Source: Phorcysia thermohydrogeniphila
GTDB taxonomy: Bacteria; Aquificota; Aquificia; Desulfurobacteriales; Desulfurobacteriaceae
Assembly (NCBI RefSeq): GCF_004339575.1
Contig: NZ_SMFV01000006.1
Coordinates: 1-64,000 of the forward strand
Reading direction: 5' to 3'
Length of the DNA stretch: 64,000 bases
Positions 4,482 through 62,554 of this stretch are shown one piece after another. The position numbers were made by a program, and so were the translations under genes. Below the pieces are notes generated by a model. It worked only from the letters and a program-made list of their open reading frames with translations. It made no database searches and was not told the DNA's origin. Every line of letters starts with the position of its first letter. The stretch's first letter is position 1.

Positions 4482-5220
4482 TTTTCTCCAGTTCCCAAAG
4501 TTTTAAATACTTCAAGAACGTGTAGTGGGAGGCCATAACACTTAAGACGAAACCTTCAAAACCGTCAAGGAAGCCCCTTTTTAAAAGGTAACGCCTTAAA
4601 AAAGCTCCAGCAGGGGAAAGTAGGAGTTTTAGGAGGGAAAACTTTTTCCCTTTTTTGAACGCACCCTCAGCGTAAAGGCTCGTATAAAGGTCAATTTTTT
4701 TTAGGTGAAAGGATACAGAAGGATACGAGTAGTGAAGGAGGTCTCCCTTTAAATAACCTGTCTTTCCGTTGACGAGAAGCCTTTCGTGAACCCAATCCCC
4801 TACCCAGCGGCACTTCTCTCTCTTAGCAAGCCTTAACTGCCAGTCGGGATACCAAGCGTGTTTTATCCACCTTCCAAGGTAGTTTGTCAGACGGCTAACG
4901 TAGTAGCCGTCAACCGGCGGGTTTTCTTTCTTAATCTTTGATATTTGGGCTGCAAGCTCCTCACTTACAATCTCATCGTCGTCTAAAAAGAGAACCCAAT
5001 CTCCACGGCATAGAGAAAGAAGATGGTTTTTCTGGTTAACGAAGTTGTCAAACTTCCTATAAAATACGCGTGCGCCAAAGCGTTCAGCTATTTCAAGGGT
5101 TCTGTCCTCTGAACCTGAATCAAGAATAACTATTTCATCGGCAACGTCTTTAATGCTGTTTAAAACTTCCCCTATCCTCTTTTCAGAGTTAAAAGTGAGA
5201 ATTCCTACCGAGAGCTTCAA
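4459..5220 (-). CDS. glycosyltransferase, GT2 family (WaaE/KdtX-like)
   Basis: A 253-residue GT-A enzyme. The start LSVGILTFNSEKRI, the LDSGSEDRT nucleotide-binding turn, VNQKNHLLSLCRGDWVLFLDDDE (metal-binding DxD region) and the later WVHERL block match GT2 proteins of the WaaE/KdtX group that add sugars to the LPS core. The precise sugar is not known. It overlaps the polysaccharide deacetylase by 4 bp and the GT4 gene by 23 bp. Together they form a small envelope-polysaccharide operon. Confidence 0.85.
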   Translation of the reverse strand: MKLSVGILTFNSEKRIGEVLNSIKDVADEIVILDSGSEDRTLEIAERFGARVFYRKFDNFVNQKNHLLSLCRGDWVLFLDDDEIVSEELAAQISKIKKENPPVDGYYVSRLTNYLGRWIKHAWYPDWQLRLAKREKCRWVGDWVHERLLVNGKTGYLKGDLLHYSYPSVSFHLKKIDLYTSLYAEGAFKKGKKFSLLKLLLSPAGAFLRRYLLKRGFLDGFEGFVLSVMASHYTFLKYLKLWELEKNEKARRS

Positions 5221-6263
5221 AGTACCTTCCCCTTCTTAAAGAATTTGTAAAGGGATAGACCCAAATCGGTTGAAAAGGAAAAGAGCCTTCCAAGAACTGT
5301 AAAGATATCCTTTCCAAGGGAAACTCGGGGGAGCTCCTTAAAGTCTGACATTTCAGTAACAACTCCTCTCTTCGTCGTGAAGATGTAATCATAAACCCTT
5401 GCCGCAATCTCCTTACTAAACTCTGAGTAGTGTCCAAAGGGCCAAGCAAAGGTGTTTACCTTTACGCCGAGCTTTTCCTCTATCTCCGCCTTACTTTCTA
5501 AGAGCTCCCTCTCTATTCTCTCCCTTGCAATACTCTCCGTTTCAAACTCTCCAAGGGTTTTAAACCTCTTTTCTACTTCCCTCTTTAAGCTCTCCTTCCA
5601 GTTCCCTTCTTTTTTAAAGTCTTTGCAAAAGGTTAGGAACTCTTCAGAAGGATAGAACTTTCTTCCACTGAGCTCACTCCCCGTTTTAAAGAGGGGAAGA
5701 CCGATAAAGAGCTCTCTGGAATATAAAAGGGCTGTCCAGCGAAAGTTTTTCCCATCGTAGAAATCCTCTATCTCTGGGGATACAGGAAAAGAGAAGTGAT
5801 ACTTACCGTGAGCTCCAAAAGAAAAGACGTCCCTCATCCTGTCAAGCTCTTCCCAGCTTAAAAACTCTTCTGAACTTCCCCTCCTTACAAACTCAACGTG
5901 TCCTTCGTGCATTGACTTTGGAGAAAAGAGCTCTTTAAAAGAAACCTTCCCCTCCCAGTAGTCAAAAAGGGTTCTTCTAACTCCTTCCTCCCTTATCCTT
6001 CCAGAAGTAATAAAAATGTGGGCTGGAATTCCGAGCTTTTTCAGAACAGGGTAGGCATATACAAAGTTATCTGCGTAGCCGTCGTCAAATGTAATTGCCG
6101 CCCTACGGCACGTGTCATTTTCTTCAAAAATCGCCTGCAGGGGAACTACCTTAAAACGGCTCTTTATGAGACTGAGAGCTCTTTGGAAAGTATCAATATC
6201 TATATCGTCCCTTTTTCCTCTGTCCGGATAAACCCTATGGAGGAGGAAAACAACACCTGACAA
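5217..6263 (-). CDS. polysaccharide deacetylase family protein (NodB-like)
   Basis: A 348-residue carbohydrate esterase 4-type protein expected to remove N-acetyl groups from a glycan by metal-dependent hydrolysis. The first catalytic motif is clear in ITFDDGYADNF. The metal-ligand histidines are probably in GAHGKYHFSF, and FAWPFGHYS matches the later conserved motif. There is no obvious signal peptide, so it may act on a cytoplasmic or membrane-linked precursor. The TTG start is preceded by AGGAG at 7 bases. It is the first gene of the leftward polysaccharide cluster. Confidence 0.85.
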   Translation of the reverse strand: MSGVVFLLHRVYPDRGKRDDIDIDTFQRALSLIKSRFKVVPLQAIFEENDTCRRAAITFDDGYADNFVYAYPVLKKLGIPAHIFITSGRIREEGVRRTLFDYWEGKVSFKELFSPKSMHEGHVEFVRRGSSEEFLSWEELDRMRDVFSFGAHGKYHFSFPVSPEIEDFYDGKNFRWTALLYSRELFIGLPLFKTGSELSGRKFYPSEEFLTFCKDFKKEGNWKESLKREVEKRFKTLGEFETESIARERIERELLESKAEIEEKLGVKVNTFAWPFGHYSEFSKEIAARVYDYIFTTKRGVVTEMSDFKELPRVSLGKDIFTVLGRLFSFSTDLGLSLYKFFKKGKVL

Positions 6264-6340
6264 CCTTTTTCTCCTGAAAGGAGTAGATATATTTTAAGGC
6301 ACTGATATGGTATAATATTTTGAAAGGATAACCAAGTTTC

Positions 6341-7069
6341 CTAATCTCCGAACCGGAACTTCTTTAACCATTCATAAACAATGGAGAAACGGACATTTAC
6401 CGCATCGTAGTAAGCTTCTGTGTGAGACTCACTGAGAGCGTAAACTATACTAAAGGCCTCTACAAGGAGAAACTTTTCTCCAAGGGTTAGCGAATGCCAC
6501 TTCTGAAAAAGAACGGAAAACCAATCTTTTGTTATTAACCACTCAATAACTGGCTGATAGTAAAAACAAAGAGAAAAAATTGAGGTCAAAATAACAAGGT
6601 CTCTTTTTGGAGGTAAAAAAAGAAATCTAAAGACAAAGAAGAGGTTAACAGCAAAAAACCAAAAAAGGCTGTCCCATTGCAGGAGAAAAACGTCAATCAT
6701 GAGGAGAATGGGAGTTAAAAATAGAATTGAGAGAAAATACTTTTTGAACTCAAGAAACCAAAAATTGGAAGCTTTAATTGGTAAGCTTTCTAACTGTTTT
6801 AAGATGAAGACATCTTCAAGAAGTGCACTACGGGGATTTTCATTAAGATTTGAGAGGAAACTTTTAAACTTTTCAAACCACGGAGGTTTAGAGTCAGTGT
6901 CTATAAACCAAAGTCTTCTTTTATAGAGCTGGTTTAGGTCTTCTAAGTGTTTCTCAGCAGTTTCTTTTATCTCGGAAATTTTCTTACTTTCTTCTTTTTC
7001 TAAATTTTCAACTATTTTCAGTTCTTCCTCAAAGAACCTATTAACTTGAGAAGTAGTCCTTACAGCCAT
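6341..7069 (-). CDS. membrane protein of unknown function, last gene of the WYL/zinc-ribbon cluster
   Basis: A 242-residue protein that I do not recognise. Residues 1-60 are charged and helical, probably coiled coil. From about residue 105 to 165 there are two or three hydrophobic segments (ILFLTPILLMIDVFLLQW, LFWFFAVNLFFVF, LVILTSIFSLCFYY), and the C-terminus returns to charged helix. The ATG has a GGAGGG site and overlaps the upstream coiled-coil gene by 10 bp, so the two are translationally coupled. No GAGCTC palindromes occur here although they are abundant in neighbours, which hints at foreign origin. Confidence 0.7.
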   Translation of the reverse strand: MAVRTTSQVNRFFEEELKIVENLEKEESKKISEIKETAEKHLEDLNQLYKRRLWFIDTDSKPPWFEKFKSFLSNLNENPRSALLEDVFILKQLESLPIKASNFWFLEFKKYFLSILFLTPILLMIDVFLLQWDSLFWFFAVNLFFVFRFLFLPPKRDLVILTSIFSLCFYYQPVIEWLITKDWFSVLFQKWHSLTLGEKFLLVEAFSIVYALSESHTEAYYDAVNVRFSIVYEWLKKFRFGD

Positions 7070-7788
7070 CTTTCCCTCCAGTTTTTAACTACAAGAGCAA
7101 CCGCTGAGTTCTCCTTAACATTAAGCTCCGAAAGCTTTTTCTCTAAGTCTCTTGGAGCTTTAGTCAAAGCCTCCTTCCAAACAGAAGCATCTCCAACTAC
7201 TGCTTTCCCTTCCTTTGCGTCGTTGAGAGCACTCTTTAAGTAGGCAATTCCCCCCTCAATGAAGTAGGTTTTAAAAAATAGTAAAAGAGCTTCTTCTGCT
7301 TTCTCAACGGCAAAGTCTAAAACTCTCGTATCTGAAGGTTCATAAGAGCCAAGTTGATTCAACGTCCACAAAATCTTTTCTCTCAAGTAAGGAAGCTCTT
7401 TTTCTTCCAGAATCTTTAAGTTAGCAAGCTTTGTGTAGATAACGTTAACTCTTGCGTTTTTCAGCTCCTCCATCTTAGAACTAAATTCCCATTCCCACGA
7501 CTTTTTCTTAAACCAAGCCTTTCCATAGTTAAAAGCCGCACCAATTCCTTTAACAACGAACTTAACAGTCCCAACTAAGAGGTCGGAATCATCTAAATCC
7601 TCCAAGGCTTGTTTAAACATTTGGGAAGCCTTACTCATAAGGTTGTTGTATTCTTCAAGGATATTTAGAAAAGATTGATTTATACTATCAATGTCCATTT
7701 CAAGAACTGATAAACTTTGGTCTACTTTTTCCTTAATCTCTAAGAGTGTGGATTCTATCTTTTCAAGGGAGGGCGTTTGTGAGGTCAT
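7060..7788 (-). CDS. helical/coiled-coil protein of unknown function
   Basis: A 242-residue protein without a recognised domain. It is rich in Glu, Lys and Leu. Residues 1-70 look like a long amphipathic helix. Residues 72-90 (LVGTVKFVVKGIGAAFNYG) are moderately hydrophobic and glycine-containing, perhaps a membrane-interacting helix. The rest is predicted helical by eye. The ATG follows GGAGGGG, 9 bp after the upstream coiled-coil gene. The gene lies between a second coiled-coil gene and a membrane-protein gene, suggesting one complex. Confidence 0.7.
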   Translation of the reverse strand: MTSQTPSLEKIESTLLEIKEKVDQSLSVLEMDIDSINQSFLNILEEYNNLMSKASQMFKQALEDLDDSDLLVGTVKFVVKGIGAAFNYGKAWFKKKSWEWEFSSKMEELKNARVNVIYTKLANLKILEEKELPYLREKILWTLNQLGSYEPSDTRVLDFAVEKAEEALLLFFKTYFIEGGIAYLKSALNDAKEGKAVVGDASVWKEALTKAPRDLEKKLSELNVKENSAVALVVKNWRERWL

Positions 7789-7797
7789 CTCCCCTCC

Positions 7798-8334
7798 TTA
7801 AAGGGTCATGAACTGTAGTATCAACTCTGAAATCCTCTCCAGCAGTTTGTTCGCCCTGTCTATTAAGTGGAGTTTTCTCTCAAATAATTTGTCATCACTA
7901 CTGGGAATCTTTTCTGCTATTTTCATTATGTTCTCCAGTTGACTTTTATAGTTTTCAAGTATCTTCCTCACTGTCTCGGCTTTGGCCTTTAAAGAAATCC
8001 TGTATTCCTCAAGAGCTATTCTCCTCTTTTCAACTTCAACGTAAAGCTTTTGAGCTTCTAAACTGAGCCTTTGAATCTCCTTGTAAGTGTATAAGATTTC
8101 TTTAATATCCTCCCTTGCCTCTATAATTCCTTGAAGAACTTTTACAATAGTTTCAACCTTTTCCGAATCTGAAAGTGTTTTCTTGGAGCTCTTAGGGAGA
8201 ACTTTTATCTTTACTTCTTTTCCCTTGCTCTTAGTGTCTTTTTGGAGCTCAAACTTCTTCGTCTCCTCGTCCAAACGTTCCACCAAGTATTCTCCCACTT
8301 CTAAAACGTCAAGCCAGTATTTTTCATCTTTCAT
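7798..8334 (-). CDS. coiled-coil protein of unknown function
   Basis: A 178-residue, almost wholly charged-helical protein with heptad-like spacing from about residue 60 onward (for example VEKRRIALEEYRISLKAKAE). No catalytic motif, signal peptide or membrane helix is seen. The ATG has GGGAGGGAGAG just upstream and lies 13 bp after the zinc-ribbon gene. It is probably a structural or scaffold partner of the neighbouring proteins; that is inferred from position only. Confidence 0.65.
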   Translation of the reverse strand: MKDEKYWLDVLEVGEYLVERLDEETKKFELQKDTKSKGKEVKIKVLPKSSKKTLSDSEKVETIVKVLQGIIEAREDIKEILYTYKEIQRLSLEAQKLYVEVEKRRIALEEYRISLKAKAETVRKILENYKSQLENIMKIAEKIPSSDDKLFERKLHLIDRANKLLERISELILQFMTL

Positions 8335-8347
8335 TCTCTCCCTCCCT

Positions 8348-8593
8348 TCAAAGTCTTATCCAGAGGTGAGAACCCCCAGAGGGACAACCTACTCCAGCTG
8401 GAGTCGTTGTGCAATAAACGATTTTCCCGCACTTCCTACACTGGTAAGCTTTGGTTCCGGATTTAGGAGCAACACCCCCTGAGCTACAAATCCGATACCA
8501 AAGGTGAGAACCTCCAGCGGGACAACCTACTCCAGAAGGGGTTGAAGTACTCTCTACCATAGAACCACACTTAGAACAGATGAAGACGGCCAT
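8348..8593 (-). CDS. small tandem zinc-ribbon protein
   Basis: An 81-residue protein made of two near-identical halves. Each has CxxCG, about 12 residues, GVGCP, then GGSHLW: CSKCG...GVGCPAGGSHLW and CRKCG...GVGCPSGGSHLW. The Cys-x2-Cys...Cys...His pattern suggests one zinc per half. I cannot name a family. It begins the four-gene set running to 6341 and lies 67 bp downstream of a WYL regulator on the same strand. The ATG is preceded by GGGAGG. The internal duplication is clear from the residues; the metal content is inferred. Confidence 0.75.
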   Translation of the reverse strand: MAVFICSKCGSMVESTSTPSGVGCPAGGSHLWYRICSSGGVAPKSGTKAYQCRKCGKIVYCTTTPAGVGCPSGGSHLWIRL

Positions 8594-8643
8594 TGTCCCA
8601 ACCTCCCAAACTTTTTGTCTTTTTTAGTGTAAGAAGGGAATAA

Positions 8644-8656
8644 CCCAAAATTTGGG
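8644..8656. promoter_or_regulatory. palindrome between WYL regulator and zinc-ribbon gene
   Basis: CCCAAAATTTGGG is a perfect palindrome of 6-bp arms around one base. It lies in the 67-bp gap upstream of the zinc-ribbon gene and directly after the WYL regulator's stop. It could be an operator for that regulator or another protein. No convincing -35/-10 pair is placed with it, so this is a weak call. Confidence 0.3.
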
Positions 8657-8660
8657 CCAT

Positions 8661-9737
8661 TTATAGGTTTTTAAAGAGTTTTTTCCTAACTTCAAAGAAT
8701 CTACGGAGCTCCTTAAGAAAGACCCTGTAGCGAACAAGGTTTTTTGAAAGGTCAAGAGAAAGGTCAGGATAGATTCTTTTTAACCTTTTTTGTTTGGCTA
8801 ACTCAATGTCCTCTTCACTTGGAGGGTAAAGAGCCTTAACCTCATCCAAAATGAGCCAGCTTACAAAGCGATAACTGGCATAACCAACAAGCCAGACCAG
8901 CGTTTTTTCCTTATCACTTTTCAAGTGGAACTGAGTAGGATAGAGGTATAGTTCGTGTTCAGGTCTACAATAGGCTGTATAGTCTGGAGGGAGCTCTACT
9001 TTAAAAATAAAGGGTTTCTCAGGAAAAGTAAAAAACGTGTCCTTGTAGCGTTTCCAGTAAAAGAGGGGATATGTTTCTTCCGTTAGTCCATAAGCTTTAA
9101 GCATCATAACAAGAAAAGTCCTTAGTTTTTTTGTCTTTCCATCTAAAGCTAAAAGGTAAAAAGTGCCATTGTAGTGAAAAATCTTTATGGGCAGAATTTT
9201 TATTTGTTTACTTTTGTAGGAAACAATGAGAGCCCTCCTCTGTATAATCGCTTTAAAAATCAGTTCAAGGGTTTCTTTTTCAACCCTGTTGTAACGTTCA
9301 ACAGGGAGAGGCAGATAATCAAAGGACTCCTTGGCTATTTCTTTTTCTTCACTATCAAGAAACTTTCCGAACCTGTTTATGGCATTAAGGGCCGGCTCCA
9401 ATATAGGAAGCTGCCTATACTTCTTAGGGACGAAAGAAACAAGAGTAAAGAGGGATATTAGCTCCTCTTCAGTGTAGGAAATGAGATAGGGAAAAGCTTC
9501 TATGTTGAGTTTCCAGTCCTGTGGTTTTTTGCCCCGAAGGTTATCAGATTTTTTCTCTACGTATCCTTCCTTGTAGAGGTCAGAAAGAGCTCTTTGAAGT
9601 CTTTTCCTTTCAGCTTTTCCTTCCCCTAAAACACCTCTTCTTTTAAGTTCTTTGTAAATATCGGTTGTGGAAAGAAATCTATCCCCGTTCTCCGAAAGTA
9701 ATTTTAAAATTTCAAGGATAAGGGTTATCTTTTTCAT
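8661..9737 (-). CDS. WYL-domain transcriptional regulator
   Basis: A 358-residue protein. The N-terminal ~75 residues form a winged-helix-like HTH (ILEILKLLSENG, STTDIYKELKRRGV, RALSDLYKEGYVEKK). The middle matches the WYL sensor domain: FKAIIQRRALIVSYKSK, ILPIKIFHYNGTFYLLAL and KLRTFLVMMLKAYGL. The C-terminus is a longer WCX-like extension. I chose the ATG at 9737, preceded by AGAGG at 6 bases, over an upstream in-frame start because the HTH begins there. It is divergent from ispE (64 bp apart) and upstream of the zinc-ribbon/coiled-coil cluster on the same strand. WYL regulators often control defence or stress loci in response to nucleic-acid ligands, but the target here is not shown. Confidence 0.85.
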   Translation of the reverse strand: MKKITLILEILKLLSENGDRFLSTTDIYKELKRRGVLGEGKAERKRLQRALSDLYKEGYVEKKSDNLRGKKPQDWKLNIEAFPYLISYTEEELISLFTLVSFVPKKYRQLPILEPALNAINRFGKFLDSEEKEIAKESFDYLPLPVERYNRVEKETLELIFKAIIQRRALIVSYKSKQIKILPIKIFHYNGTFYLLALDGKTKKLRTFLVMMLKAYGLTEETYPLFYWKRYKDTFFTFPEKPFIFKVELPPDYTAYCRPEHELYLYPTQFHLKSDKEKTLVWLVGYASYRFVSWLILDEVKALYPPSEEDIELAKQKRLKRIYPDLSLDLSKNLVRYRVFLKELRRFFEVRKKLFKNL

Positions 9738-9801
9738 CCTGTTCCTCTGAATGGTTTTAGATATAATCAGAATTAAGTCTTTGAAAGTCAAGAAGGAAAA
9801 T

Positions 9802-10641
9802 ATGAGGCTGATACTACCATCCCCAGCAAAGATAAACCTCTCCCTCTGGGTCAAAGGAAAGCGTCCAGACGGCTACCACGAGCTCGTAACCGTTATGCAC
9901 ACCGTTAACCTATTTGACGTTCTGTCTTTCCTTCCCTCAGACAGATTGGTCTTAAGCGTCAGGGGGAACAACTCTCTACCACTTGATAGGAGTAACCTCA
10001 TAATAAAGGCTTGCAGGCTCTTTAAGGAAAAAACGGGGATAAACCCTAAGGTAAGCATAAAGCTGACAAAGAGAATACCCGTCGGCGCGGGACTTGGAGG
10101 CGGGAGCTCTAACGCAGCGGCGACACTGAAGGGGCTAAATACCATATACGGTAATCCGTTAAGCGAGGAGGAGCTCCACGAGTTAGCGGCCAAGCTCGGC
10201 AGTGACGTTCCCTTCTTCTTAAAAGGTGGGCTCGCCATAGCTTACGGAAGGGGTGAAAAGCTAAAGTTCTTTAGTCCGGCCAACTTTGAAATCCTACTGG
10301 TCTTCCCCGGCTTTCCCTGCTCAACGGCAGAGGTCTATCAGAACCTTCCCTCTATTAAGAGGGAGGTTGCCGTTGAAGACGCAGAAAGGCTCATAATATC
10401 TCCCCTCATAAACGAGAACTTTTCAGAGCTCATAGACAACATGGAAAACGACCTTGAAAAGTCAGAATCCCCCTGCGTGAAGGAGGTCCTCAGAGTCAAG
10501 GAAAAGCTAAAGGAAATAGGACTAAAGCCTTTAATGAGTGGAAGCGGCTCGTGCGTATTTGCCATCATAAAAGGTGAAAAACCTGACACTACCCCCTTGA
10601 AAAAAGAGGGCTGGTGGTTTAAATTTCTCTCTGCAGTGTAG
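9802..10641 (+). CDS. ispE: 4-diphosphocytidyl-2-C-methyl-D-erythritol kinase
   Basis: IspE phosphorylates CDP-methylerythritol in the non-mevalonate isoprenoid pathway. The 279-residue GHMP kinase shows the N-terminal PSPAKINLSLWVKGKRPDGYHE block, the ATP-binding glycine loop PVGAGLGGGSSNAAA, and the C-terminal MSGSGSCVFAI. The ATG at 9802 (AAGGA upstream) puts the conserved PAKINL at its usual distance from the start; an ORF opening at 9751 would add a non-conserved leader. A tRNA-Gln gene follows 3 bp after the stop. Confidence 0.95.
   Translation: MRLILPSPAKINLSLWVKGKRPDGYHELVTVMHTVNLFDVLSFLPSDRLVLSVRGNNSLPLDRSNLIIKACRLFKEKTGINPKVSIKLTKRIPVGAGLGGGSSNAAATLKGLNTIYGNPLSEEELHELAAKLGSDVPFFLKGGLAIAYGRGEKLKFFSPANFEILLVFPGFPCSTAEVYQNLPSIKREVAVEDAERLIISPLINENFSELIDNMENDLEKSESPCVKEVLRVKEKLKEIGLKPLMSGSGSCVFAIIKGEKPDTTPLKKEGWWFKFLSAV
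10597..10625 (+). promoter_or_regulatory. promoter for the five-tRNA cluster
   Basis: Inside the 3' end of ispE, TTGAAA (10597-10602) and TAAATT (10620-10625) are separated by exactly 17 bases and point at tRNA-Gln, which starts 19 bases after the -10. This would let the tRNA cluster be transcribed independently of ispE. The call rests on hexamer match and spacing only. Confidence 0.5.
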
Positions 10642-10644
10642 AGC

Positions 10645-10719
10645 TGGGGCGTAGCCAAGCGGTAAGGCAGCGGACTTTGGATCCGCCATTCGCAGGTTCG
10701 AATCCTGCCGCCCCAGCCA
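10645..10719 (+). tRNA. tRNA-Gln (TTG)
   Basis: A 75-nt tRNA with encoded CCA. The acceptor TGGGGCG pairs with CGCCCCA. The anticodon arm GCGGA-CTTTGGA-TCCGC gives anticodon TTG. The T arm contains GGTTCGAATCC. First gene of a five-tRNA cluster, 3 bp after ispE. Confidence 0.97.
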
Positions 10720-10729
10720 TTTTATTATG

Positions 10730-10805
10730 GTGGGAGTAGCTCAGTTGGTGGAGCGCCGGGTTGTGGCCCCGGCGGTCGCGGGTTCAAGTCCCGTCTCCCA
10801 CCCCA
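10730..10805 (+). tRNA. tRNA-His (GTG)
   Basis: The acceptor GTGGGAG pairs with CTCCCAC. The anticodon arm CCGGG-TTGTGGC-CCCGG reads GTG. A G at 10729 can provide the G-1 opposite C73 that marks tRNA-His. CCA is encoded. It lies 10 bp after tRNA-Gln. Confidence 0.97.
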
Positions 10806-10816
10806 CATTCCGCCAT

Positions 10817-10902
10817 GCGGGAGTGGCGGAACTGGCAGACGCGCTGGACTTAGGATCCAGTGCCCTCTGGGCGTGTGGGTTCGACTCCCACCTCCCGCAC
10901 CA
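10817..10902 (+). tRNA. tRNA-Leu (TAG)
   Basis: An 86-nt class II tRNA with a long variable arm. The acceptor GCGGGAG pairs with CTCCCGC. The anticodon arm CTGGA-CTTAGGA-TCCAG gives TAG. CCA is encoded. Confidence 0.97.
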
Positions 10903-10908
10903 TAAAGA

Positions 10909-10984
10909 GCGGGCGTAGCTCAGTAGGTAGAGCGAAGCCTTGCCAAGGCTTAGGTCGCGGGTTCAAGTCCCGTCGCCCGCTCCA
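10909..10984 (+). tRNA. tRNA-Gly (GCC), second copy
   Basis: A 76-nt tRNA identical over its full length to the leftward copy at 194-269: anticodon loop TTGCCAA, acceptor GCGGGCG/CGCCCGC, encoded CCA. It lies 6 bp after tRNA-Leu. Confidence 0.97.
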
Positions 10985-10989
10985 CTAAT

Positions 10990-11064
10990 GGCGGCGTAGC
11001 CAAGTGGTAAGGCAGGGGACTGCAAATCCCTTATTCGGCGGTTCGATTCCGCCCGCCGCCTCCA
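10990..11064 (+). tRNA. tRNA-Cys (GCA)
   Basis: A 75-nt tRNA. The acceptor GGCGGCG pairs with CGCCGCC. The anticodon arm GGGGA-CTGCAAA-TCCCT reads GCA (one G-T pair in the stem). CCA is encoded. Last of the cluster; a T-rich stretch (ATTTTTTAA, from 11068) follows and may help end transcription. Confidence 0.97.
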
Positions 11065-11096
11065 CTTATTTTTTAATCAAAATCAAAAAGAGAAAG

Positions 11097-11417
11097 ATGC
11101 TAAAAACAGCAGAATCTATTGAACTTAAGAAAGAAGATATCCTTAGAATCTTGAAAGAACACAAAAATTACCTCAGAGAGAGCTTCGGAGTTAAAGAAAT
11201 TGGGCTCTTTGGTTCTTTTGCAAGAGAAGAACAAACGAAAGATAGCGATATTGACATCTTGATTGAAGTTGAAAAGAATAAAATTGGACTTATAAGTTAC
11301 ATAAAGCTTAAACTTTTCCTTGAAGAGCTCTTTGGAAGAAAAGTTAACTTAGTCACCAAGAAAGCTCTCAGACCAGAGCTAAAGGAAACTATTCTAAGAG
11401 AAGTTGTTTATGTCTAA
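11097..11417 (+). CDS. MNT-type nucleotidyltransferase (MntA-like antitoxin)
   Basis: A 106-residue minimal nucleotidyltransferase. GLFGSFAREEQTKDSDIDIL carries the GSF and DxD motifs of the MNT fold that transfers AMP. In type VII HEPN/MNT toxin-antitoxin pairs such a protein inactivates a HEPN RNase by AMPylation. No HEPN gene lies beside it: upstream is tRNA-Cys, downstream (11418-11470) is too short, and then hyuB runs in the opposite direction. It may be an orphan or act on a distant toxin. I chose the ATG at 11097 because the earlier in-frame start lies inside tRNA-Cys. The ribosome site is weak (AGAAAG). Confidence 0.75.
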   Translation: MLKTAESIELKKEDILRILKEHKNYLRESFGVKEIGLFGSFAREEQTKDSDIDILIEVEKNKIGLISYIKLKLFLEELFGRKVNLVTKKALRPELKETILREVVYV

Positions 11418-11470
11418 ACATAATAGTTCTGAAATTAGGAACATTCTCTCTAACGAACTGTGAATTCGTC

Positions 11471-13033
11471 CTATTTGTTTCTTCCCCAGCCTCCGCCTCC
11501 GGGAGTTTCTATCCTTAAAAGGTCTCCAGCAGAAAGTTTCTCTGTAAACTTGGCAGGTTTTAGAACTTTCTTCCCGTTCTTTACAACCCAGTTTTCACCA
11601 ACTTTACCGGGCTCTCCTCCAAAGAGGCCGTAAGGGGGAATTTTTCTCCTTTCGGAAACCACTGTTACTTCAACATCCGTAAGGAACTTAAACTCCCTGA
11701 CAATTCCATCACCTCCGTTAAAAAGTCCCCTTCCTCCCGAACCTCTTCTAACGGAATACTCTGTAACCATAAATGGGTAAGCAAATTCAAGGGCTTCTAT
11801 CGGAGTGTTGAGGGTGTTTGTCATGTGGGAGTGAACTGCGCTTTCTCCGTTGCCTTTAGCCCAAGCGCCCATTCCTCCGCCAATTGTTTCGTAGTAGGTA
11901 AAGGGAGTACCAGTTTCTGGATCAATTCCTCCTACGGTTACGTTGTTCATAGTTCCCTGAGAGGCAGAAGGAATGAAGTCGGGGAGGGCTTTTGATAGAG
12001 CTCCAAGCAATACATCAACAATCCTCTGAGACGTCTCAACGTTACCGGCAGAAACGGCACGGGGAAAGTTAGCGTCAACTATCGTCCCTTTTTTGGTTAT
12101 CACCTTTATGGGTCTCATACAGCCGGCGTTTGTCGGAATGTCCTCCTTCACAAGACACCTAAAAACGTAGAGAACTGCTGAAAGTGTTATAGCCCTAACG
12201 CTGTTTATGCTTCCCTCAACTTCTTTATCTGAACCTGAAAAGTCAACTACGGCACTGTCTCCGCTTATTGTGATTTTTACCTTTATTTTTACGTCTTTTC
12301 TCCCAAGTCCGTCGTCTTCCATGAAATCTTCAAACTCGTAAACACCGTCTGGTATTGACTCTATGGTCTTTCTCATGATTTTTTCGGAGTAGTCAATGAG
12401 AGCTCTGCTGTAATCTTTAACCGTAGAAAGGGAGTATTTCTCTACGAGCTCTAAAAGCCTTTTTATGGCAACTCTATTTGCCATGATTTGGGCTGTAAAG
12501 TCTCCTTCTCTTTCTTCTGGAGTCCTGACGTTTGCTTTTATGAGGGCTAAGAACTCCTCGTTTATCCTTCCAGCCTCAACAATTTTTAGAGGAGGAATCC
12601 TTATACCTTCCTGAAAGAGGGAAGTTGCAAGGGGCATTGAGCCGGGGGAGATTCCCCCTATGTCTGCGTGGTGAGCTCTGTTTGCAACGTAAAAAACAGG
12701 TTTTCCGTCAACGTAAACGGGAGCAACTATCGTAACGTCTGGAAGGTGAGTTCCTCCCCTAAAAGGGTCGTTTAGAATTGCCATATCGCCTTCTTTAAGC
12801 TCTAAGCTCTCTATCACGGACTTAACAGACAGAGGCATTGAGCCAAGATGAACGGGAATGTGGGCAGCCTGAGCAACCATTTCACCGTTTTCGTCAAATA
12901 TGGCACAGGAAAAGTCTTTCCTCTCCTTTATGTTCGGAGAAAAGGAAGTCCTCTGAAGGACGATTCCCATCTCTTCAGCAATAGAAGAAAACCTGTTCTT
13001 AAAGACTTCAAGGAGTATAGGATTAACTCCCAT
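11471..13033 (-). CDS. hyuB: hydantoinase B/oxoprolinase family protein
   Basis: A 520-residue HyuB-type subunit. With HyuA it forms an ATP-dependent enzyme that opens the ring of hydantoins, 5-oxoproline or similar cyclic substrates; the substrate here is not known. Seen motifs are the N-terminal ILLEVFKNRFSSIAEEMG, NDPFRGGTHLPDV, ANRAHHADIGG and the C-terminal SGGRGLFNGGDGIVREF and TPGGGGWG, all usual in the family. The length is typical. The ATG follows AAAGGAGG. It lies 18 bp after an AAA ATPase gene rather than directly after hyuA, which is 2.1 kb further upstream. Confidence 0.92.
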   Translation of the reverse strand: MGVNPILLEVFKNRFSSIAEEMGIVLQRTSFSPNIKERKDFSCAIFDENGEMVAQAAHIPVHLGSMPLSVKSVIESLELKEGDMAILNDPFRGGTHLPDVTIVAPVYVDGKPVFYVANRAHHADIGGISPGSMPLATSLFQEGIRIPPLKIVEAGRINEEFLALIKANVRTPEEREGDFTAQIMANRVAIKRLLELVEKYSLSTVKDYSRALIDYSEKIMRKTIESIPDGVYEFEDFMEDDGLGRKDVKIKVKITISGDSAVVDFSGSDKEVEGSINSVRAITLSAVLYVFRCLVKEDIPTNAGCMRPIKVITKKGTIVDANFPRAVSAGNVETSQRIVDVLLGALSKALPDFIPSASQGTMNNVTVGGIDPETGTPFTYYETIGGGMGAWAKGNGESAVHSHMTNTLNTPIEALEFAYPFMVTEYSVRRGSGGRGLFNGGDGIVREFKFLTDVEVTVVSERRKIPPYGLFGGEPGKVGENWVVKNGKKVLKPAKFTEKLSAGDLLRIETPGGGGWGRNK

Positions 13034-13051
13034 GAAACCGGCCTCCTTTTT

Positions 13052-14257
13052 TCAGTAGATGAAGCCAAACAACCATAGAGGAATTCTCTTTCCAGAGCCG
13101 ATTTCTACTCCGTCAACTGCTAAATAAGCATTACTAAGACCTTTTACCTGTTCCAACTTTTTGTTCTTACCTCCTACTTCAAAGATGAACTTTTCGTCTA
13201 CGAAGAAGTCTCCTCTATCAACGTAGTTTAATTTGTGCCTGTAAGAGGTTACAGAGGCAAAGAAGGTTTCTCTTTCTGTTCCCTTTTCTCTCTCTAAGCA
13301 TAGTGCATTTAAAAGGTTTGTATTGGCAAGGAAGAGTTTATCTGGCTTTCTTACCGCCCGAAACCTTTTGGCTTCGTGCTGAACGTGAATAATAAGGTCA
13401 GCCCTTGAAAGATACTCTATGTATTTATAGAGGGTAGCTTTAGAAACTCCAACAAGGGACGCCACGTTTTCAACGGACAGTTCCATAGGTTTTGAAACGC
13501 ATATCGTAACCAAGAGTTTTTTTATCGTTTGAACTTTCTCAGGATTAACAGAGTAGAGAAGAGCAATGTCAGAGGAGATTGCCAAATCCACAGAAGCTGC
13601 AAGCTTCTCAAGAAACTTTTCGGGGTCTTCAAAGTAGAAAGGGTAAGCTCCATGTAACTTGTATTCTTCAAATAGTTCAAGTATTTTCCTGTCGCTGAAA
13701 GTTCTAACTATCCCAAAGGCAATATCTTCGTGATTGTCTATGATATCTGTGAGGGTAAGAGGAGAAAAGTCTATTCCAGTAGAAAGTTCTATAAATTCTC
13801 TGAAAGAGAGAACTGGCAGTTTAAACATTGAAAAACGTCTTGCAAAGTCTGGGTTATTAAGGTATACAGCAGAAGAACCTGAAAAATAAACTTTTAGGTC
13901 AAGGAAATCGTAGACAGATTTTAGGTGAGACTGAAAGTCTTTCACTCTGTGAATCTCGTCTATAAAGACGTACTTTCCTCCTAAGGATGCGTATTCCTCT
14001 AAGAATTCAAATAACGAAAAACCAGAAAAGGCAGGATGGTCGCAGGATATAAAGAGAGCTTTTGATGGAGGAAGGTTCAGCTCTTTTAAAATTTGAACCA
14101 TTAAGGTTGTCTTTCCAACGCCACGACCGCCGTATATACCAACCAGTTTAGAGGGACTATTCTTAACCTGACTGTAGAGAAACCTTTTATACTCCGGCAC
14201 TTTTTGGGAAGTTTTAAGAACGGTCAGACGCTTGGCTACCTCAAGTAACCTTTCCAT
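13052..14257 (-). CDS. AAA-type ATPase with DUF4143-like C-terminus
   Basis: A 401-residue protein. Walker A is in GIYGGRGVGKTTL (about residues 40-52). Walker B is in YVFIDEIHRVKDF, and a sensor-like YFSGSSAVYL follows, as in the AAA_14 family. The C-terminal half (SVENVASLVGVSKATLYKYIEYL as a winged helix, then VDRGDFFVDEKFIFEVGGKNK) matches DUF4143, which often has a degenerate nuclease-like fold. Such ATPases occur singly in accessory DNA of thermophiles and their function is mostly unknown. It interrupts the usual hyuA-hyuB order. Two direct repeats lie just upstream of its start. Confidence 0.85.
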   Translation of the reverse strand: MERLLEVAKRLTVLKTSQKVPEYKRFLYSQVKNSPSKLVGIYGGRGVGKTTLMVQILKELNLPPSKALFISCDHPAFSGFSLFEFLEEYASLGGKYVFIDEIHRVKDFQSHLKSVYDFLDLKVYFSGSSAVYLNNPDFARRFSMFKLPVLSFREFIELSTGIDFSPLTLTDIIDNHEDIAFGIVRTFSDRKILELFEEYKLHGAYPFYFEDPEKFLEKLAASVDLAISSDIALLYSVNPEKVQTIKKLLVTICVSKPMELSVENVASLVGVSKATLYKYIEYLSRADLIIHVQHEAKRFRAVRKPDKLFLANTNLLNALCLEREKGTERETFFASVTSYRHKLNYVDRGDFFVDEKFIFEVGGKNKKLEQVKGLSNAYLAVDGVEIGSGKRIPLWLFGFIY

Positions 14258-14267
14258 TAGTTCAGCC

Positions 14268-14315
14268 CATTAAACTAAAGTTGGTATTTTAAGTTTAACA
14301 CATTAAACTAAACTT
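14268..14315. repeat. pair of 15-bp direct repeats upstream of the AAA ATPase
   Basis: CATTAAACTAAAGTT (14268-14282) and CATTAAACTAAACTT (14301-14315) differ at one base and start 33 bp apart, about three helical turns. They lie 11 to 58 bp upstream of the ATPase start (minus strand). They look like paired binding sites for a regulator, possibly the ATPase's own winged-helix domain; that is inference. Confidence 0.5.
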
Positions 14316-14486
14316 CATCCATCCTTGAACCTGAGCAAGGAAACAGCTTTAAGCATTGTAGAATCCTTAAACGATTGCCTGAAAGGTTCTTACTATGTTT
14401 CACTGCTTTAAACTATTGTTAATTAAAACTTTAAGGGAATAAATATTCAGTTCTTGAAGGTTACATTACAACGGCTTAACCCCTTG

Positions 14487-14495
14487 TGCTATAAT
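14487..14495 (+). promoter_or_regulatory. extended -10 promoter element
   Basis: TGCTATAAT is a perfect extended -10 (TGnTATAAT), 48 bases upstream of the start at 14544. No good -35 is seen, as is usual for extended -10 promoters. It would drive the possible nuclease gene. Confidence 0.6.
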
Positions 14496-14543
14496 TTTTA
14501 ACAGCTTATACTAGATGGAAACTGCTAAGAAAAGGGGGGTAAA

Positions 14544-15164
14544 ATGCCACCAAATGCCAGTATGGATTCAATTTTAAAAGCCTGTGTAAATGGAACAAAA
14601 AAGGCATGGAAAGAATACTATGAAATAAGTGGTGGAGAGTGGTTGTGGACAGCTCCCGAATATTTCATAACAGTAAAAATTTTTGAAGAACTTTCAAAAC
14701 TCAACTTGTTATTGGAACTGGAAAGTAAGGTAGGAGAGACTATATTCAACGCTGATATACAGTATCCGGGTCGCTACCCAAGAGCACTAAAGCTAAATGG
14801 CAGATTTGACATAACATTATGGTGGAAAAATGGTTACCCGCGCGGAGTTATTGAAGTAAAGGTTATGAGAAACAATTCCTTAAATCCCATCAGAAACGAC
14901 TTAGAGGAAATAACAGAATTTCTAAGGCTGGCAAGGAATAAGGATTCTAAGGTTCAGTTTGGAATTATTACAGTCTACACAGACTACTATGATGAGGGAG
15001 GCAAAGCGAACAAAGTAGTGGAACGGAGACTTAACAACATATTAGAAGAATGTAAATCCGTTTCTAGAAGAAACGATTTTGAGATTAAATGGAAGGATGT
15101 GATTAAAAAAGTTGAAAATGAAGAAAGTGCATATGGAATAATTGCCTGCTTACTTAAAGTCTGA
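14544..15164 (+). CDS. hypothetical protein with a possible PD-(D/E)XK nuclease core
   Basis: A 206-residue soluble protein that I do not recognise as a named family. The stretch GRFDITLWWKNGYPRGVIEV followed by KV places an Asp, then about 15 residues later an Ile-Glu-Val-Lys (E-x-K) at the end of a strand, as in the PD-(D/E)XK nuclease core. Support is limited to this motif. The ATG has a strong AGGGGGG site. It is rightward between two leftward genes, ends 2 bp from the 3' end of hyuA, and with the ATPase forms the insert that separates hyuA from hyuB. Confidence 0.6.
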   Translation: MPPNASMDSILKACVNGTKKAWKEYYEISGGEWLWTAPEYFITVKIFEELSKLNLLLELESKVGETIFNADIQYPGRYPRALKLNGRFDITLWWKNGYPRGVIEVKVMRNNSLNPIRNDLEEITEFLRLARNKDSKVQFGIITVYTDYYDEGGKANKVVERRLNNILEECKSVSRRNDFEIKWKDVIKKVENEESAYGIIACLLKV

Positions 15165-15166
15165 TT

Positions 15167-17140
15167 CTAAACCTCAATCACCAAGTTCCTAAACTCATCA
15201 ACGAAGGCCTTAGCAAAGGGAGGGATAACTACGGTAGAGCTGTACTCAACGATTATTGCAGCTCCGTCTATCCTGTTACCGGGAAGGAGTTTTTCTCTGT
15301 CGTAAACGGGGGTGTCAAGCCACCTTCCTTCAAAGTGGACTTTTTTGACTTCAAGGAGAGCTCCCTCCGGTATCCTCTCTGAGAAGGTCTCAGCCCTCTT
15401 AATTTCAGGCTTTTCCGTTTCTCCTATCGCTCTTACCCTCACGTTTACAAGTTCTATTGGTCTACCCCTGTGGGCGTAACCGTAGAGCCTTTCGTGCTCC
15501 CTGTGGAAAGTTTCCACAAAGTTATCGCTAAAGGGGACTGTAATTTCAAATGACTGTCCCTTGTAACGTAGGTCAACGTATCTTTCTAACTTCTGTTTTT
15601 CTTCCGGAATTCCTTCTACGTTTAGTTCTTCTCTGGCTTTTTCTTCAAGGACTTTAAAGAACTTCTCAAGATTCTCCTTTTTAAAGGCTTTTCCGGAGAG
15701 CATGACTGTGAGGGAGTAGTCCCTTACTATGTCTGAAAGAACCATTCCGAGGGCTGAGAGAGTTCCGGGATTGGAAGGAACAATTACCCTTGGAATTCCA
15801 AGGAGTGCTGCTAAGTATGCAGCGTGGAGCCCTCCAGCTCCTCCAAAGGAAAAGAGGGAAAAGTCCTTCGGGTCGTATCCCCTTTCAATAGAGATAGCCC
15901 TTATAGCTTTTTCCATTTTTGTGTTTGCTACTTCCAGAATACCTTCTGCAAGCTCCAGCGGTGTAAGCTTTAGCTTCCTTGCCATTTCCTCAAAGAAGGG
16001 AAGGAGCTTCTTATCGTTCAGTTTCATCTTACCGCCAAGGAAGCGGTGAGGAATGAGGCGTCCGAGGAAGAGGTTAGCGTCGGTTATCGTTATTCTGTCT
16101 CCTCCCCTGTCGTAGCATATCGGACCGGGGTCAGCTCCGGCGCTTTCAGGGCCAACGGTGAGAGCTCCGCCTGCGTCAACCCTCGCTATTGAACCTCCAC
16201 CAGCTCCAACGGTGTGAATGTCTATTACGGGAACTTTTATGGGATAGCCTTCTATTTTTGCCTCAGTCGTAACTATCGGCCTACCGTCTATGAGTGAAAC
16301 GTCGGTTGACGTTCCTCCCATATCAAAGGTTATGAGCTTTTCATACCCTGCAAGTTTTCCTATCTTCCACGCCCCAGCCACGCCGCCGGCAGGCCCAGAG
16401 AGAATAGTTCTAACCGGCTGTTCCATTACCGTTTCGGCAGAGATAACCCCACCGTTTGACTGCATTATCCGGAACTTGTCTTTTTTCCCGAGGTTTTCTT
16501 TTAAGAAAGAAACGTAACTTTTCATTTTTGGCATGACAAAGGCGTTTATGACCGTTGTAGAAGCCCTTTCATATTCCCTGAATTCTGGAACTATTCTGCT
16601 TGAGATAGAAACGAAAAAGCCCTTCTCTTTTAAGACTTTCTCTACTAACTCTTCGTGCTCTGGATTTAAGAAGGAAAAGAGAAATGAAACGGCAACAGAC
16701 TCTACGCCCTTTTCCTTTAGCTCTTCTGAAAGTTTTTCAACTTCCTCTAACTCAAGCTCCTGAACTATCTCCCCTTTAGCCGAAACCCTGCAGTTAAGTC
16801 CGAAGGAGAGCTCTGAAGGAACGAGAGGAGGTCTTTTCCTGTAGTGGAGGTTGTAGAGCTCCTCCCTGTTCTGCCTGCCTATGATGAGAATATCCTCAAA
16901 GCCCTTGTTTGTTACAAAGGCCGTTTTAGCTCCTTTCTTCTCAAGGACGGCGTTTGTTGCAACGGTCGTTCCGTGAACGATGTTTTTCTCCTCTTCACCG
17001 GCTATTATCTTTAATCCTTTAAGGACTGCCCTTGCCGGATTATCCGGGGTTGAAAGAACCTTTAAGACTCCCCACTCCTTTCCCTTCTTATAGACGAAAT
17101 CTGTAAACGTTCCTCCAGTATCAACGCCGATTATAACCAT
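15167..17140 (-). CDS. hyuA: hydantoinase/oxoprolinase family protein, A subunit
   Basis: A 657-residue ASKHA-fold ATP-binding subunit, partner of HyuB. It opens with GVDTGGTFTDFVYKKG (phosphate loop), then HGTTVATNAVLEKKGAKTA, SGPAGGVAGAW, TFDMGGTSTDVSLI (second phosphate motif), HTVGAGGGSIARVDAGGAL and FSFGGAGGLHAAYLA, all characteristic. The length is normal. The ATG follows GAGGAG. It lies 27 bp downstream of arsC on the same strand. hyuB is 2.1 kb downstream, separated by two unrelated genes. Confidence 0.93.
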   Translation of the reverse strand: MVIIGVDTGGTFTDFVYKKGKEWGVLKVLSTPDNPARAVLKGLKIIAGEEEKNIVHGTTVATNAVLEKKGAKTAFVTNKGFEDILIIGRQNREELYNLHYRKRPPLVPSELSFGLNCRVSAKGEIVQELELEEVEKLSEELKEKGVESVAVSFLFSFLNPEHEELVEKVLKEKGFFVSISSRIVPEFREYERASTTVINAFVMPKMKSYVSFLKENLGKKDKFRIMQSNGGVISAETVMEQPVRTILSGPAGGVAGAWKIGKLAGYEKLITFDMGGTSTDVSLIDGRPIVTTEAKIEGYPIKVPVIDIHTVGAGGGSIARVDAGGALTVGPESAGADPGPICYDRGGDRITITDANLFLGRLIPHRFLGGKMKLNDKKLLPFFEEMARKLKLTPLELAEGILEVANTKMEKAIRAISIERGYDPKDFSLFSFGGAGGLHAAYLAALLGIPRVIVPSNPGTLSALGMVLSDIVRDYSLTVMLSGKAFKKENLEKFFKVLEEKAREELNVEGIPEEKQKLERYVDLRYKGQSFEITVPFSDNFVETFHREHERLYGYAHRGRPIELVNVRVRAIGETEKPEIKRAETFSERIPEGALLEVKKVHFEGRWLDTPVYDREKLLPGNRIDGAAIIVEYSSTVVIPPFAKAFVDEFRNLVIEV

Positions 17141-17167
17141 ACCGGACTCCTCAGGGCTTAGTGAACT

Positions 17168-17596
17168 TTACAGTTGTTCCAGCAAATTCTTAACTTTCTC
17201 TTCTATCTCGTCTCTCACTACCCGAAAAGCCTTTAGCCTTTCTTCTTTTTCTCCTTGAACCTTTGCAGGGTCTGGTAGTCCCCAGTGGATAACTTTTGCT
17301 CCGTCAACCACAGGACAGCTTTCGGCAGCGTCGCCACAGAGGGTAACCACAACGTTAAGGAAGTCAAAGGGGATATCCTCTAAGGACTTTGACTTCTGGT
17401 GGCTGATGTCTATGCCCCTTTCTTCCATTACCTTTACTGCCAACGGGTGAACGTAACCGGAAGGGTTTGAGCCTGCAGAGAAGACCTCTACCTTTTTACC
17501 AAACTTATCGGCGTAGTAACGGGCAAAACCTTCTGCCATTTGGCTTCTGGCTGAGTTTCCCGTGCAGATGAATCCGACCTTTAACGACTTTCCCAA
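17168..17596 (-). CDS. arsC: arsenate reductase, low-molecular-weight phosphatase type
   Basis: A 142-residue protein expected to reduce arsenate to arsenite using thioredoxin. The phosphatase-like P-loop is ICTGNSARSQMAEGFA with the nucleophilic Cys and Arg of CX5R. The further pair in VTLCGDAAESCPV supplies the second and third cysteines of the pI258-type redox relay, and GLPDPAK carries the acid residue. The start is a TTG (AAGGTAG upstream). No arsB or arsR is next to it. The neighbour upstream is an iron-sulphur protein. Confidence 0.9.
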   Translation of the reverse strand: MGKSLKVGFICTGNSARSQMAEGFARYYADKFGKKVEVFSAGSNPSGYVHPLAVKVMEERGIDISHQKSKSLEDIPFDFLNVVVTLCGDAAESCPVVDGAKVIHWGLPDPAKVQGEKEERLKAFRVVRDEIEEKVKNLLEQL

Positions 17597-57750: not shown

Positions 57751-58803
57751 GTGGGTAATTCCTACTATGTATTTCCTGCTGTCAGAGGTATTCAAGCAGG
57801 AAGAGAATTTTACACAGCAATGTGCCCTCTAAAGTTAATACCTGAGCTTTTTAAAGAAATTAATATTCCTTTAGTTCCTCCTAGATTAAGAGCACAAAGG
57901 ATTCTTAATAAAAGGAGAATTCCTGAAATTAAAAGGTATATATTAGAAAATCCATATACCTATGTTTTTTCATCAATCACTATTTCCATTGATGGAAACA
58001 TAGAATTTGAACCCGTTAGTGAAGACGACTATCAAATAGGAAAGCTCAAGATAGATAAAAGCTCAAGGGTTATAATAAATGATGGACAACATCGTATTGA
58101 AGCTATTAAGCAAGCTCTACAGGAAAATCCACGATTAGCATACGAAACCATTTCAGTCGTCATCTTCGTTGATTTAGGACTGGAAAGAAGTCAGCAGATA
58201 TTTACAGATCTCAATAGATATTCTGTAAAACCCACCCCTTCCATTAGCATTCTCTATGATTATAGAGATCAAATGGCAGAGTTAGCTAGGTATTTATCAG
58301 AAAATGTCTATTACTTTAAAGGCCTTGTTGAATATGAAAGAAGCTCTATATCCAATAGATCTCACAAACTCTTTACACTCAGTAGCATTTATCATGCTAC
58401 TAAGGAACTTTTAGGTAAGAAGGGAAATAAGATAGAAATAAGCGATGAAGACAGAATATTGTCCTTCGAGTTTTGGGAAGAAGTAGGTAGGAACATCCCT
58501 GAATGGGAAAAGATAAAGAAAGGAGAGTTAGCGGCTTACAAAGCAAGACAAGAATATATCCATTCTCATGGGCTTTTCCTTAACGCCATTGCCATGGTAG
58601 GCCGCGTAATTATTAGTAACCACTTAAGCTTGCAGGAAACTCTTTCCAAGTTGAGAGATATTAACTGGCATAGAAATAATCCCGAATGGGAAGGGATAGC
58701 TTTAAACAAAGGCAGATTAAATAAAGCTAATGTAAATATAAAGGCTACAGCAAATTTCATTCTAAAGAAAATCCTAGGAGAAAAATATGTCTTCCAGATC
58801 TAA
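57751..58803 (+). CDS. dndB: DNA phosphorothioation regulator/accessory protein DndB
   Basis: A 350-residue protein with the DGQHR motif at residues 111-115 (VIINDGQHRIEAIKQAL), followed by SVVIFVDLGLERSQQIFTDL and NRYSVKPTPS, characteristic of DndB. In known systems DndB is not needed for sulphur insertion but influences modification frequency and represses the operon. The GTG start at 57751 has AGAGGT upstream. Its end overlaps dndC by 17 bp. First gene of a four-gene operon, notably AT-rich compared with the genes to the left of 57000. Confidence 0.93.
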   Translation: MGNSYYVFPAVRGIQAGREFYTAMCPLKLIPELFKEINIPLVPPRLRAQRILNKRRIPEIKRYILENPYTYVFSSITISIDGNIEFEPVSEDDYQIGKLKIDKSSRVIINDGQHRIEAIKQALQENPRLAYETISVVIFVDLGLERSQQIFTDLNRYSVKPTPSISILYDYRDQMAELARYLSENVYYFKGLVEYERSSISNRSHKLFTLSSIYHATKELLGKKGNKIEISDEDRILSFEFWEEVGRNIPEWEKIKKGELAAYKARQEYIHSHGLFLNAIAMVGRVIISNHLSLQETLSKLRDINWHRNNPEWEGIALNKGRLNKANVNIKATANFILKKILGEKYVFQI

Positions 58804-62154: not shown

Positions 62155-62173
62155 TAGTTTTAGGAGAGAGAAA

Positions 62174-62542: not shown

Positions 62543-62554
62543 TTCCAATACTTC

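What the first reader, a model, noticed from the sequence alone, without database searches (positions are those of the whole stretch)
6341..9737. Unrecognised operon: WYL regulator, tandem zinc ribbon, two coiled-coil proteins, membrane protein
Five leftward genes are tightly packed (gaps of 67, 13 and 9 bp and one overlap), each of the four small ones with a strong ribosome site. None of the last four matches a family I can name. A WYL regulator ahead of a zinc-ribbon sensor, scaffold-like helices and a membrane effector is the kind of layout seen in stress or anti-phage loci. The stretch 6341-8180 lacks the GAGCTC motif of its surroundings, hinting at transfer. A defence role is speculation; the operon itself is clearly visible.
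Basis: partly seen in the sequence, partly recalled or inferred. Interest (0 to 1): 0.6.

Follow-up and report, generated by a model that had tools for sequence, protein, structure and literature searches.

The report
Mobile WYL-controlled zinc-ribbon membrane cassette
A heat-loving deep-branching bacterium carries a five-gene block, missing at the same site in nine relatives, in which a switch protein probably acts on a conserved DNA site to control a small zinc protein, two rod-shaped proteins and a membrane protein of unknown kind; it is probably an optional defence or stress module, but nobody has tested what it does.

Summary
The operon is real: WYL regulator, tandem zinc ribbon (ZnR), two helical proteins (CC1, CC2) and a membrane protein (MEM), with the stated gaps and ribosome sites. 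The GAGCTC argument for transfer fails, but better evidence exists. In nine of nine relatives examined, including a same-genus one, the neighbouring deacetylase gene and ispE are adjacent, so about 3.5 kb was inserted here. CC1-CC2-MEM occurs together, in fixed order and next to ZnR, in only 4 of 136 genomes of the phylum. Five other genomes keep just WYL+ZnR, two WYL alone. ZnR stays under purifying selection. New here: a 30-bp element (imperfect palindrome plus a -10-like box) lies between WYL and ZnR in all seven contiguous WYL-ZnR loci. No other exact match occurs in 22 genomes. A held-out eighth cassette has it at the same spacing. A paralogous WYL in this genome precedes a GmrSD restriction gene. 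None of the four partner proteins matches Pfam, NCBIfam, PADLOC or PHROGs convincingly; CC2 and MEM match no PDB fold. Best reading: a mobile WYL-switched accessory cassette whose helical proteins act at the inner membrane, most likely in conflict or stress. A defence role is plausible but unproven.

The parts
8661..9737 (-). WYL-domain transcription regulator, 358 aa
   Evidence: Pfam WYL E=7.4e-8, above cut-off; PADLOC WYL E=1.9e-8; orthologues 46-56% identical in 7 family members
8644..8656 (-). putative operator, CCCAAATTTTGGG (13-bp palindrome CCCAAA-T-TTTGGG)
   Evidence: conserved between WYL and ZnR in 7 genomes, with a held-out eighth site in G008
8626..8631 (-). -10-like box TACACT, 12 nt after the palindrome in every site
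   Evidence: consensus TANANT in the alignment of 7 loci; activity inferred
8348..8593 (-). tandem zinc ribbon (ZnR), 81 aa: two CxxC-x14-C-x5-H units that are 20/32 identical
   Evidence: all eight putative metal ligands invariant in 9 homologues; internal repeat; no Pfam or NCBIfam match reaches its cut-off
7798..8334 (-). CC1, soluble helical protein, 178 aa
   Evidence: no family match; homologues only in G000, G008, G009 and G016 of 136 genomes apart from weak coiled-coil hits; no hydrophobic segment
7060..7788 (-). CC2, helical protein, 242 aa: helices 8-66 and 76-147 joined by a low-confidence hinge, then three shorter helices
   Evidence: AlphaFold2 mean pLDDT 75.7, pTM 0.68; no PDB or viral fold match with E<=0.001
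6341..7069 (-). MEM, membrane protein, 242 aa: N-terminal helix 2-53, then hydrophobic segments at about 112-212
   Evidence: hydropathy in all four homologues; AlphaFold2 mean pLDDT 81.8; no PDB fold match
6264..9801 (.). stretch between deacetylase and ispE that holds the whole cassette; 53 bp in the same-genus relative G001
   Evidence: deacetylase and ispE adjacent in 9 of 9 relatives

Best explanation
This is a mobile accessory cassette with a one-component switch. Shown by sequence: a WYL regulator gene, a conserved palindrome plus -10-like box directly behind it, then ZnR, CC1, CC2 and MEM packed as one transcription unit, inserted between two housekeeping genes. Inferred: a WYL dimer binds the palindrome, which sits where the -35 hexamer of the ZnR promoter would be, and turns the promoter on or off when its WYL domain binds a ligand made during infection or genotoxic stress. 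Inferred: CC1 and CC2 form a helical assembly tethered to the inner membrane by MEM, with ZnR as sensor or adaptor, and the assembly disturbs or protects the membrane. The likeliest purpose is anti-phage or related conflict, with stress response second. Rough odds: mobile accessory operon 0.95; WYL acts through this operator 0.85; helical proteins act together at the membrane 0.6; conflict/defence role 0.4.
For: Insertion: deacetylase and ispE adjacent in nine relatives, 53 bp apart in G001. Patchiness: CC1, CC2 and MEM each clearly found in the same 4 of 136 genomes, in the order CC1-CC2-MEM with ZnR adjacent. Stepwise presence: WYL+ZnR+CC in G009, WYL+ZnR in G011, G015, G017, G018 and G021, WYL alone in G004 and G014, all in the same surE-to-hemW slot. 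Operator: all exact matches in 22 genomes lie at WYL-ZnR junctions, and G017's junction site matches with one mismatch; leave-one-out scores are 13.6-33 against 7-15.8 for the best site in shuffled 64-kb windows; held-out G008 site with the same 12-nt spacing. Guilt by association: a WYL paralogue (38% identical) precedes GmrSD at G000:C7, and paralogues elsewhere precede AAA+ genes. Published precedent: BrxR and CapW are WYL regulators that bind inverted repeats or palindromes before defence genes, and type IV restriction enzymes are among the commonest BrxR partners (PMC9122601, PMC9122588).
Against: No partner protein matches a known defence family. The full cassette sits beside ispE, not inside a defence island; the Dnd genes are about 48 kb away. 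ZnR is kept under selection in genomes without CC1-CC2-MEM, so ZnR has a role of its own. G016 has the helical genes without a WYL or the operator. Only four members are known, so no deep conservation or covariation can be used. No complex prediction was possible.
Confidence: 0.42

Rival explanations
1. Envelope or metal stress module: ZnR senses metal or redox state, WYL responds to a stress metabolite, and the helical/membrane proteins reinforce or remodel the inner membrane; unrelated to phages.
For: WYL+ZnR is maintained under purifying selection at a fixed chromosomal slot in five genomes without the helical genes, which looks like a standing physiological role. WYL proteins also control DNA-damage and genotoxic-stress responses (PMC10693628, PMC11804915).
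Against: The patchy distribution, insertion at a new site and repeated absence of the helical part are unusual for housekeeping stress genes. No metal transporter or chaperone is linked to it.
Confidence: 0.3
2. Conflict module with ZnR as immunity or control factor: CC1-CC2-MEM harm the cell or an invader and ZnR restrains them, so that ZnR and WYL persist as orphans after the harmful part is lost.
For: Presence pattern: full cassette, WYL+ZnR, WYL alone. ZnR is adjacent whenever CC1-CC2-MEM is present, even in G016 where the gene order differs. CC-carrying loci are not one clade in the WYL tree, which fits repeated loss.
Against: No toxin family or pore-former fold detected: CC2 and MEM have no PDB match with E<=0.001. 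Repeated gain would give the same pattern.
Confidence: 0.2
3. Cargo genes of a mobile element with no benefit to the host, on the way to being lost.
For: Patchy, inserted, lower G+C in CC1-MEM (37%) than flanks (44-47%).
Against: No integrase or transposase gene lies between the deacetylase and ispE; ZnR and WYL under purifying selection; G009's cassette has the G+C of its flanks.
Confidence: 0.08

Closest known systems
BrxR / CapW WYL-domain regulators of defence loci (PMC9122601, PMC9122588)
   Same: WYL regulator directly ahead of a variable cassette; palindromic site in the promoter region of that cassette; a paralogue in this genome precedes a GmrSD-type restriction gene
   Different: No sequence match to any solved structure at E<=0.01; palindrome is 13 bp, takes the place of the -35 region and lies downstream of the regulator gene, whereas CapW sites are 19-24 bp and overlap the -10; downstream genes are not a known system
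PafBC-type WYL activators of the DNA-damage response (PMC11804915)
   Same: A promoter with a -10-like box and no recognisable -35 would suit a WYL activator that helps RNA polymerase
   Different: Single WYL gene, not a heterodimer; activation not tested; different targets
CoCoNuT type IV restriction systems (PMC11090510)
   Same: Combine zinc ribbons and long coiled coils
   Different: Defined by an McrB-like GTPase and McrC; neither is present here
Unnamed CxxC...CPxGGxHxW zinc-ribbon repeats in secreted proteins (L038 Bacteroidetes, huge phage LR756504)
   Same: Same repeat unit as ZnR, 39-50% identical
   Different: Those copies have an N-terminal signal-like segment and two or three units; ZnR here has none and sits in an operon with WYL

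Membership tests
BrxR/CapW-type WYL defence regulator | WYL domain | tested here: met
   Pfam PF13280 E=7.4e-8, above cut-off
BrxR/CapW-type WYL defence regulator | N-terminal winged helix-turn-helix DNA-binding domain | tested here: inconclusive
   Residues 8-65 match only weakly (PADLOC CARF3 E=0.0045); region conserved in 11 homologues
BrxR/CapW-type WYL defence regulator | Palindromic site in the promoter region of the controlled genes | tested here: met
   7 loci plus held-out G008; binding itself not testable here
BrxR/CapW-type WYL defence regulator | Known defence genes directly downstream | tested here: not met
   No PADLOC match for the four downstream proteins; met only for the paralogue at G000:C7
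BrxR/CapW-type WYL defence regulator | Sequence relationship to solved BrxR or CapW chains | tested here: not met
   No PDB chain at E<=0.01 with an 11-sequence profile
CoCoNuT / McrBC type IV restriction | McrB-like GTPase and McrC in the operon | tested here: not met
   Five genes, none with these domains
Alpha-helical pore-forming protein (ClyA-like, tripartite) | Fold match to solved members | tested here: not met
   CC2 best ClyA match E=0.09, TM 0.26; MEM best such match E=0.69
Alpha-helical pore-forming protein (ClyA-like, tripartite) | Membrane-inserting activity | not testable with these tools
   needs liposome or growth assay
Known anti-phage system in PADLOC-DB | Match of effector proteins to a system model | tested here: not met
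   Best DruC E=0.023 and DrmB E=0.018, both chance level

The most novel reading that the evidence does not exclude
A previously undescribed anti-phage (or anti-plasmid) system of Desulfurobacteriaceae: a WYL switch releases a zinc-ribbon sensor and a two-coiled-coil plus membrane-protein complex that acts on the inner membrane of infected cells.
Probability: 0.3. Interest if true: 0.65.

Novelty: new variant of a known kind. Interest (0 to 1): 0.42.

Why it matters
It would add an effector type with no recognised relatives to the WYL-controlled cassettes, in a deep-branching thermophile lineage whose defence repertoire seems little studied. The operator makes the regulatory half directly testable with one purified protein and one short DNA probe.

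Tried and rejected
GAGCTC depletion as a sign of transfer: rejected, four larger gaps in the window. V-ATPase, dynamin-helical and Druantia-like hits: chance-level coiled-coil matches, not repeated between homologues. ClyA-like, TolQ-like and STAT-like fold hits for CC2 and all fold hits for MEM: E>0.005 and low TM-scores, rejected. Weak CC1/CC2 hits in other genomes of the phylum: short and marginal, read as coiled coils from their lengths and scores, not examined singly. ZnR hit in G019: 32 aa with three stops in frame, inside another ORF. Phage, plasmid and viral-contig searches: no CC homologue; ZnR found in no plasmid and one phage only. Only one genome-contig scan was available; it found ZnR outside the family only in a Bacteroidetes secreted protein and in two long Clostridia proteins with a weak partial match. 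Consensus promoter scan: fewer sites than in shuffles, so not used.

Full report
What is there. The window is the first 64 kb of a 92-kb contig of a 1.62-Mb genome. The near relatives with record titles are Desulfurobacteriaceae (Thermovibrio and others). Gaps are 67, 13 and 9 bp with a 10-bp overlap, and each of the four small genes has a strong ribosome site. Only WYL reaches a curated family cut-off. ZnR scores below every cut-off; NCBIfam, PADLOC and PHROGs give only weak or chance-level matches for the four small proteins.

Anatomy. ZnR is two copies of one unit, CxxC-x14-C-x5-H, 20 of 32 residues identical to each other. All eight putative zinc ligands and both tryptophans are invariant in nine homologues. 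CC1 is charged and has no hydrophobic segment. CC2 is predicted as two helices of about 60 and 70 residues joined by an uncertain hinge, then three shorter helices. MEM has a 52-residue N-terminal helix and then several hydrophobic segments. Neither CC2 nor MEM has a PDB fold match with E<=0.001, and CC2 none among viral models. The models rest on four-sequence alignments and should be read with care.

It was inserted here. In nine relatives examined, including the same-genus genome G001, the deacetylase gene (5217-6263 in the window) lies directly beside ispE; in G001 the two are 53 bp apart. In the window 3538 bp separate them. The neighbouring genes on the deacetylase side keep their order in all nine. 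No integrase gene lies in the inserted stretch and no clear target duplication was seen; the junction DNA has diverged too far to place the ends to the base. CC1-MEM is 37% G+C against 44-47% in the flanks, but the same module in G009 matches its flanks, so composition alone is weak evidence.

Distribution. CC1, CC2 and MEM each find the same four genomes among 136 of the phylum with strong scores: G000, G008, G009 and G016. The order CC1-CC2-MEM is the same in all four and ZnR is always adjacent: before CC1 in three (with an extra small ORF between in G008) and after MEM in G016. The helical proteins are only 20-34% identical to the window's, while ispE is 59-71% identical between the same genomes, so they evolve fast or have travelled. 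In a slot between surE and hemW, G009 has the full set, five genomes have WYL+ZnR and two have WYL alone. ZnR and WYL are under purifying selection in the genomes that lack the helical genes: omega 0.05-0.24 for ZnR among G011, G015, G018 and G021, 0.05-0.18 for WYL among G011, G015 and G018; larger distances are saturated. In the WYL tree the CC-carrying loci are not one clade; repeated loss or repeated transfer would both explain that, and the data do not decide.

A conserved operator. The WYL-ZnR gap holds a conserved element in all seven genomes where the two genes lie together on one contig: an imperfect palindrome, then 12 nt, then a -10-like TANANT box. A 30-bp pattern search of 22 family genomes found exact matches only at the WYL-ZnR junctions of six genomes, and the seventh (G017) with one mismatch. 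Three other one-mismatch hits in G006, G018 and G009 lie elsewhere and were not followed; the reversed control pattern gave one hit. Leave-one-out scores of the seven sites (13.6-33) mostly exceed the best site in shuffled 64-kb windows (7-15.8); G017 is the weakest. G008 was not used to build the matrix, yet has CCCAATTTTTGGG, 12 nt, TAGACT just ahead of its cassette; its score of 14.7 would not stand out in a whole genome, but its place and spacing are those expected. Its WYL gene ends within about 20 bp of the end of another contig, so WYL and the cassette are probably neighbours across a contig break (inference). WYL-only genomes lack the element. Synonymous sites between the window and the others are near saturation (pS about 0.7), so 30 bp of conserved intergenic DNA implies selection. 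The palindrome lies where a -35 hexamer would be, so WYL could repress by blocking polymerase or activate by replacing the -35 contact; sequence alone cannot tell.

What the regulator family does. A WYL paralogue in the same genome (G000:C7, 38% identical) is followed in the same direction by a GmrSD restriction gene. Paralogues in G007 and G012 are followed by AAA+ genes. More distant WYL paralogues in G004 lie among NADAR and McrC genes. Published WYL regulators BrxR and CapW bind inverted repeats or palindromes before defence genes, and type IV restriction enzymes are among the commonest partners of BrxR (PMC9122601, PMC9122588). This is why a conflict role is ranked first. It is association, not proof.

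Mechanism, with status of each step. WYL acts on the 8644-8656 palindrome: inferred from conservation. A ligand or signal changes WYL activity: inferred from known WYL proteins. ZnR, CC1, CC2 and MEM are made together: read from the tight packing. CC1, CC2 and MEM act as one unit at the membrane: inferred from fixed order, co-occurrence and MEM hydropathy. The target (phage, plasmid or stress): unknown. ZnR must also do something without the helical genes, since it is kept alone with WYL.

Limits. Only four full cassettes are known. The genome-collection scan could be run once. No complex prediction was possible. Several relatives are metagenome-assembled genomes, so absences and the broken WYL in G008 and G021 may be assembly faults.

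Verdict. A real, mobile, regulated accessory operon with unrecognised effector proteins and a conserved operator: a new variant of the WYL-controlled cassette theme. Defence is the leading but unproven purpose.

Noticed in passing
window 57751-64000 (to 64465 in the contig, L097): Complete DndB-DndC-DndD-DndE DNA phosphorothioation genes, with a convergent 636-aa GmrSD_N/GmrSD_C (DUF262/DUF1524) protein next to them that looks like DndI; it runs past the window end and is intact.
   Followed up: partly
L025 (G000:C7) 4943-8227: Second WYL regulator of the same subfamily followed in the same direction by a 601-aa GmrSD-type restriction gene.
   Followed up: yes
window 11076-14257: Small nucleotidyltransferase-like gene (PADLOC PDC-S09) behind a five-tRNA cluster, then after a hydantoinase-like gene an AAA/DUF4143 ATPase (PDC-S01).
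   Followed up: no
window 14544-15164: 206-aa protein with a weak match to the phage-exclusion protein Tin (PADLOC E=5e-7) and no Pfam hit.
   Followed up: no
L023 (G004:C4) 10407-17343: Next to the WYL slot: further WYL genes, a NADAR-domain protein and an McrC-type protein, a possible defence island.
   Followed up: partly
L022 (G016:C15) 5796-9324: Cassette without WYL and with ZnR last; an HVO_A0114-type helix-turn-helix gene lies divergently upstream and may be a substitute regulator.
   Followed up: partly
L038 5941-6348; L062 3935-4222: The same zinc-ribbon repeat in proteins with signal-like N-termini: three units in a Bacteroidetes genome, two in a 636-kb uncultured phage.
   Followed up: partly
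L016 (G008:C112) 62-886: Two extra small ORFs flank ZnR in the G008 cassette: about 60-72 aa before it and 88 aa with CxxC pairs after it (the latter with an assembly gap).
   Followed up: no
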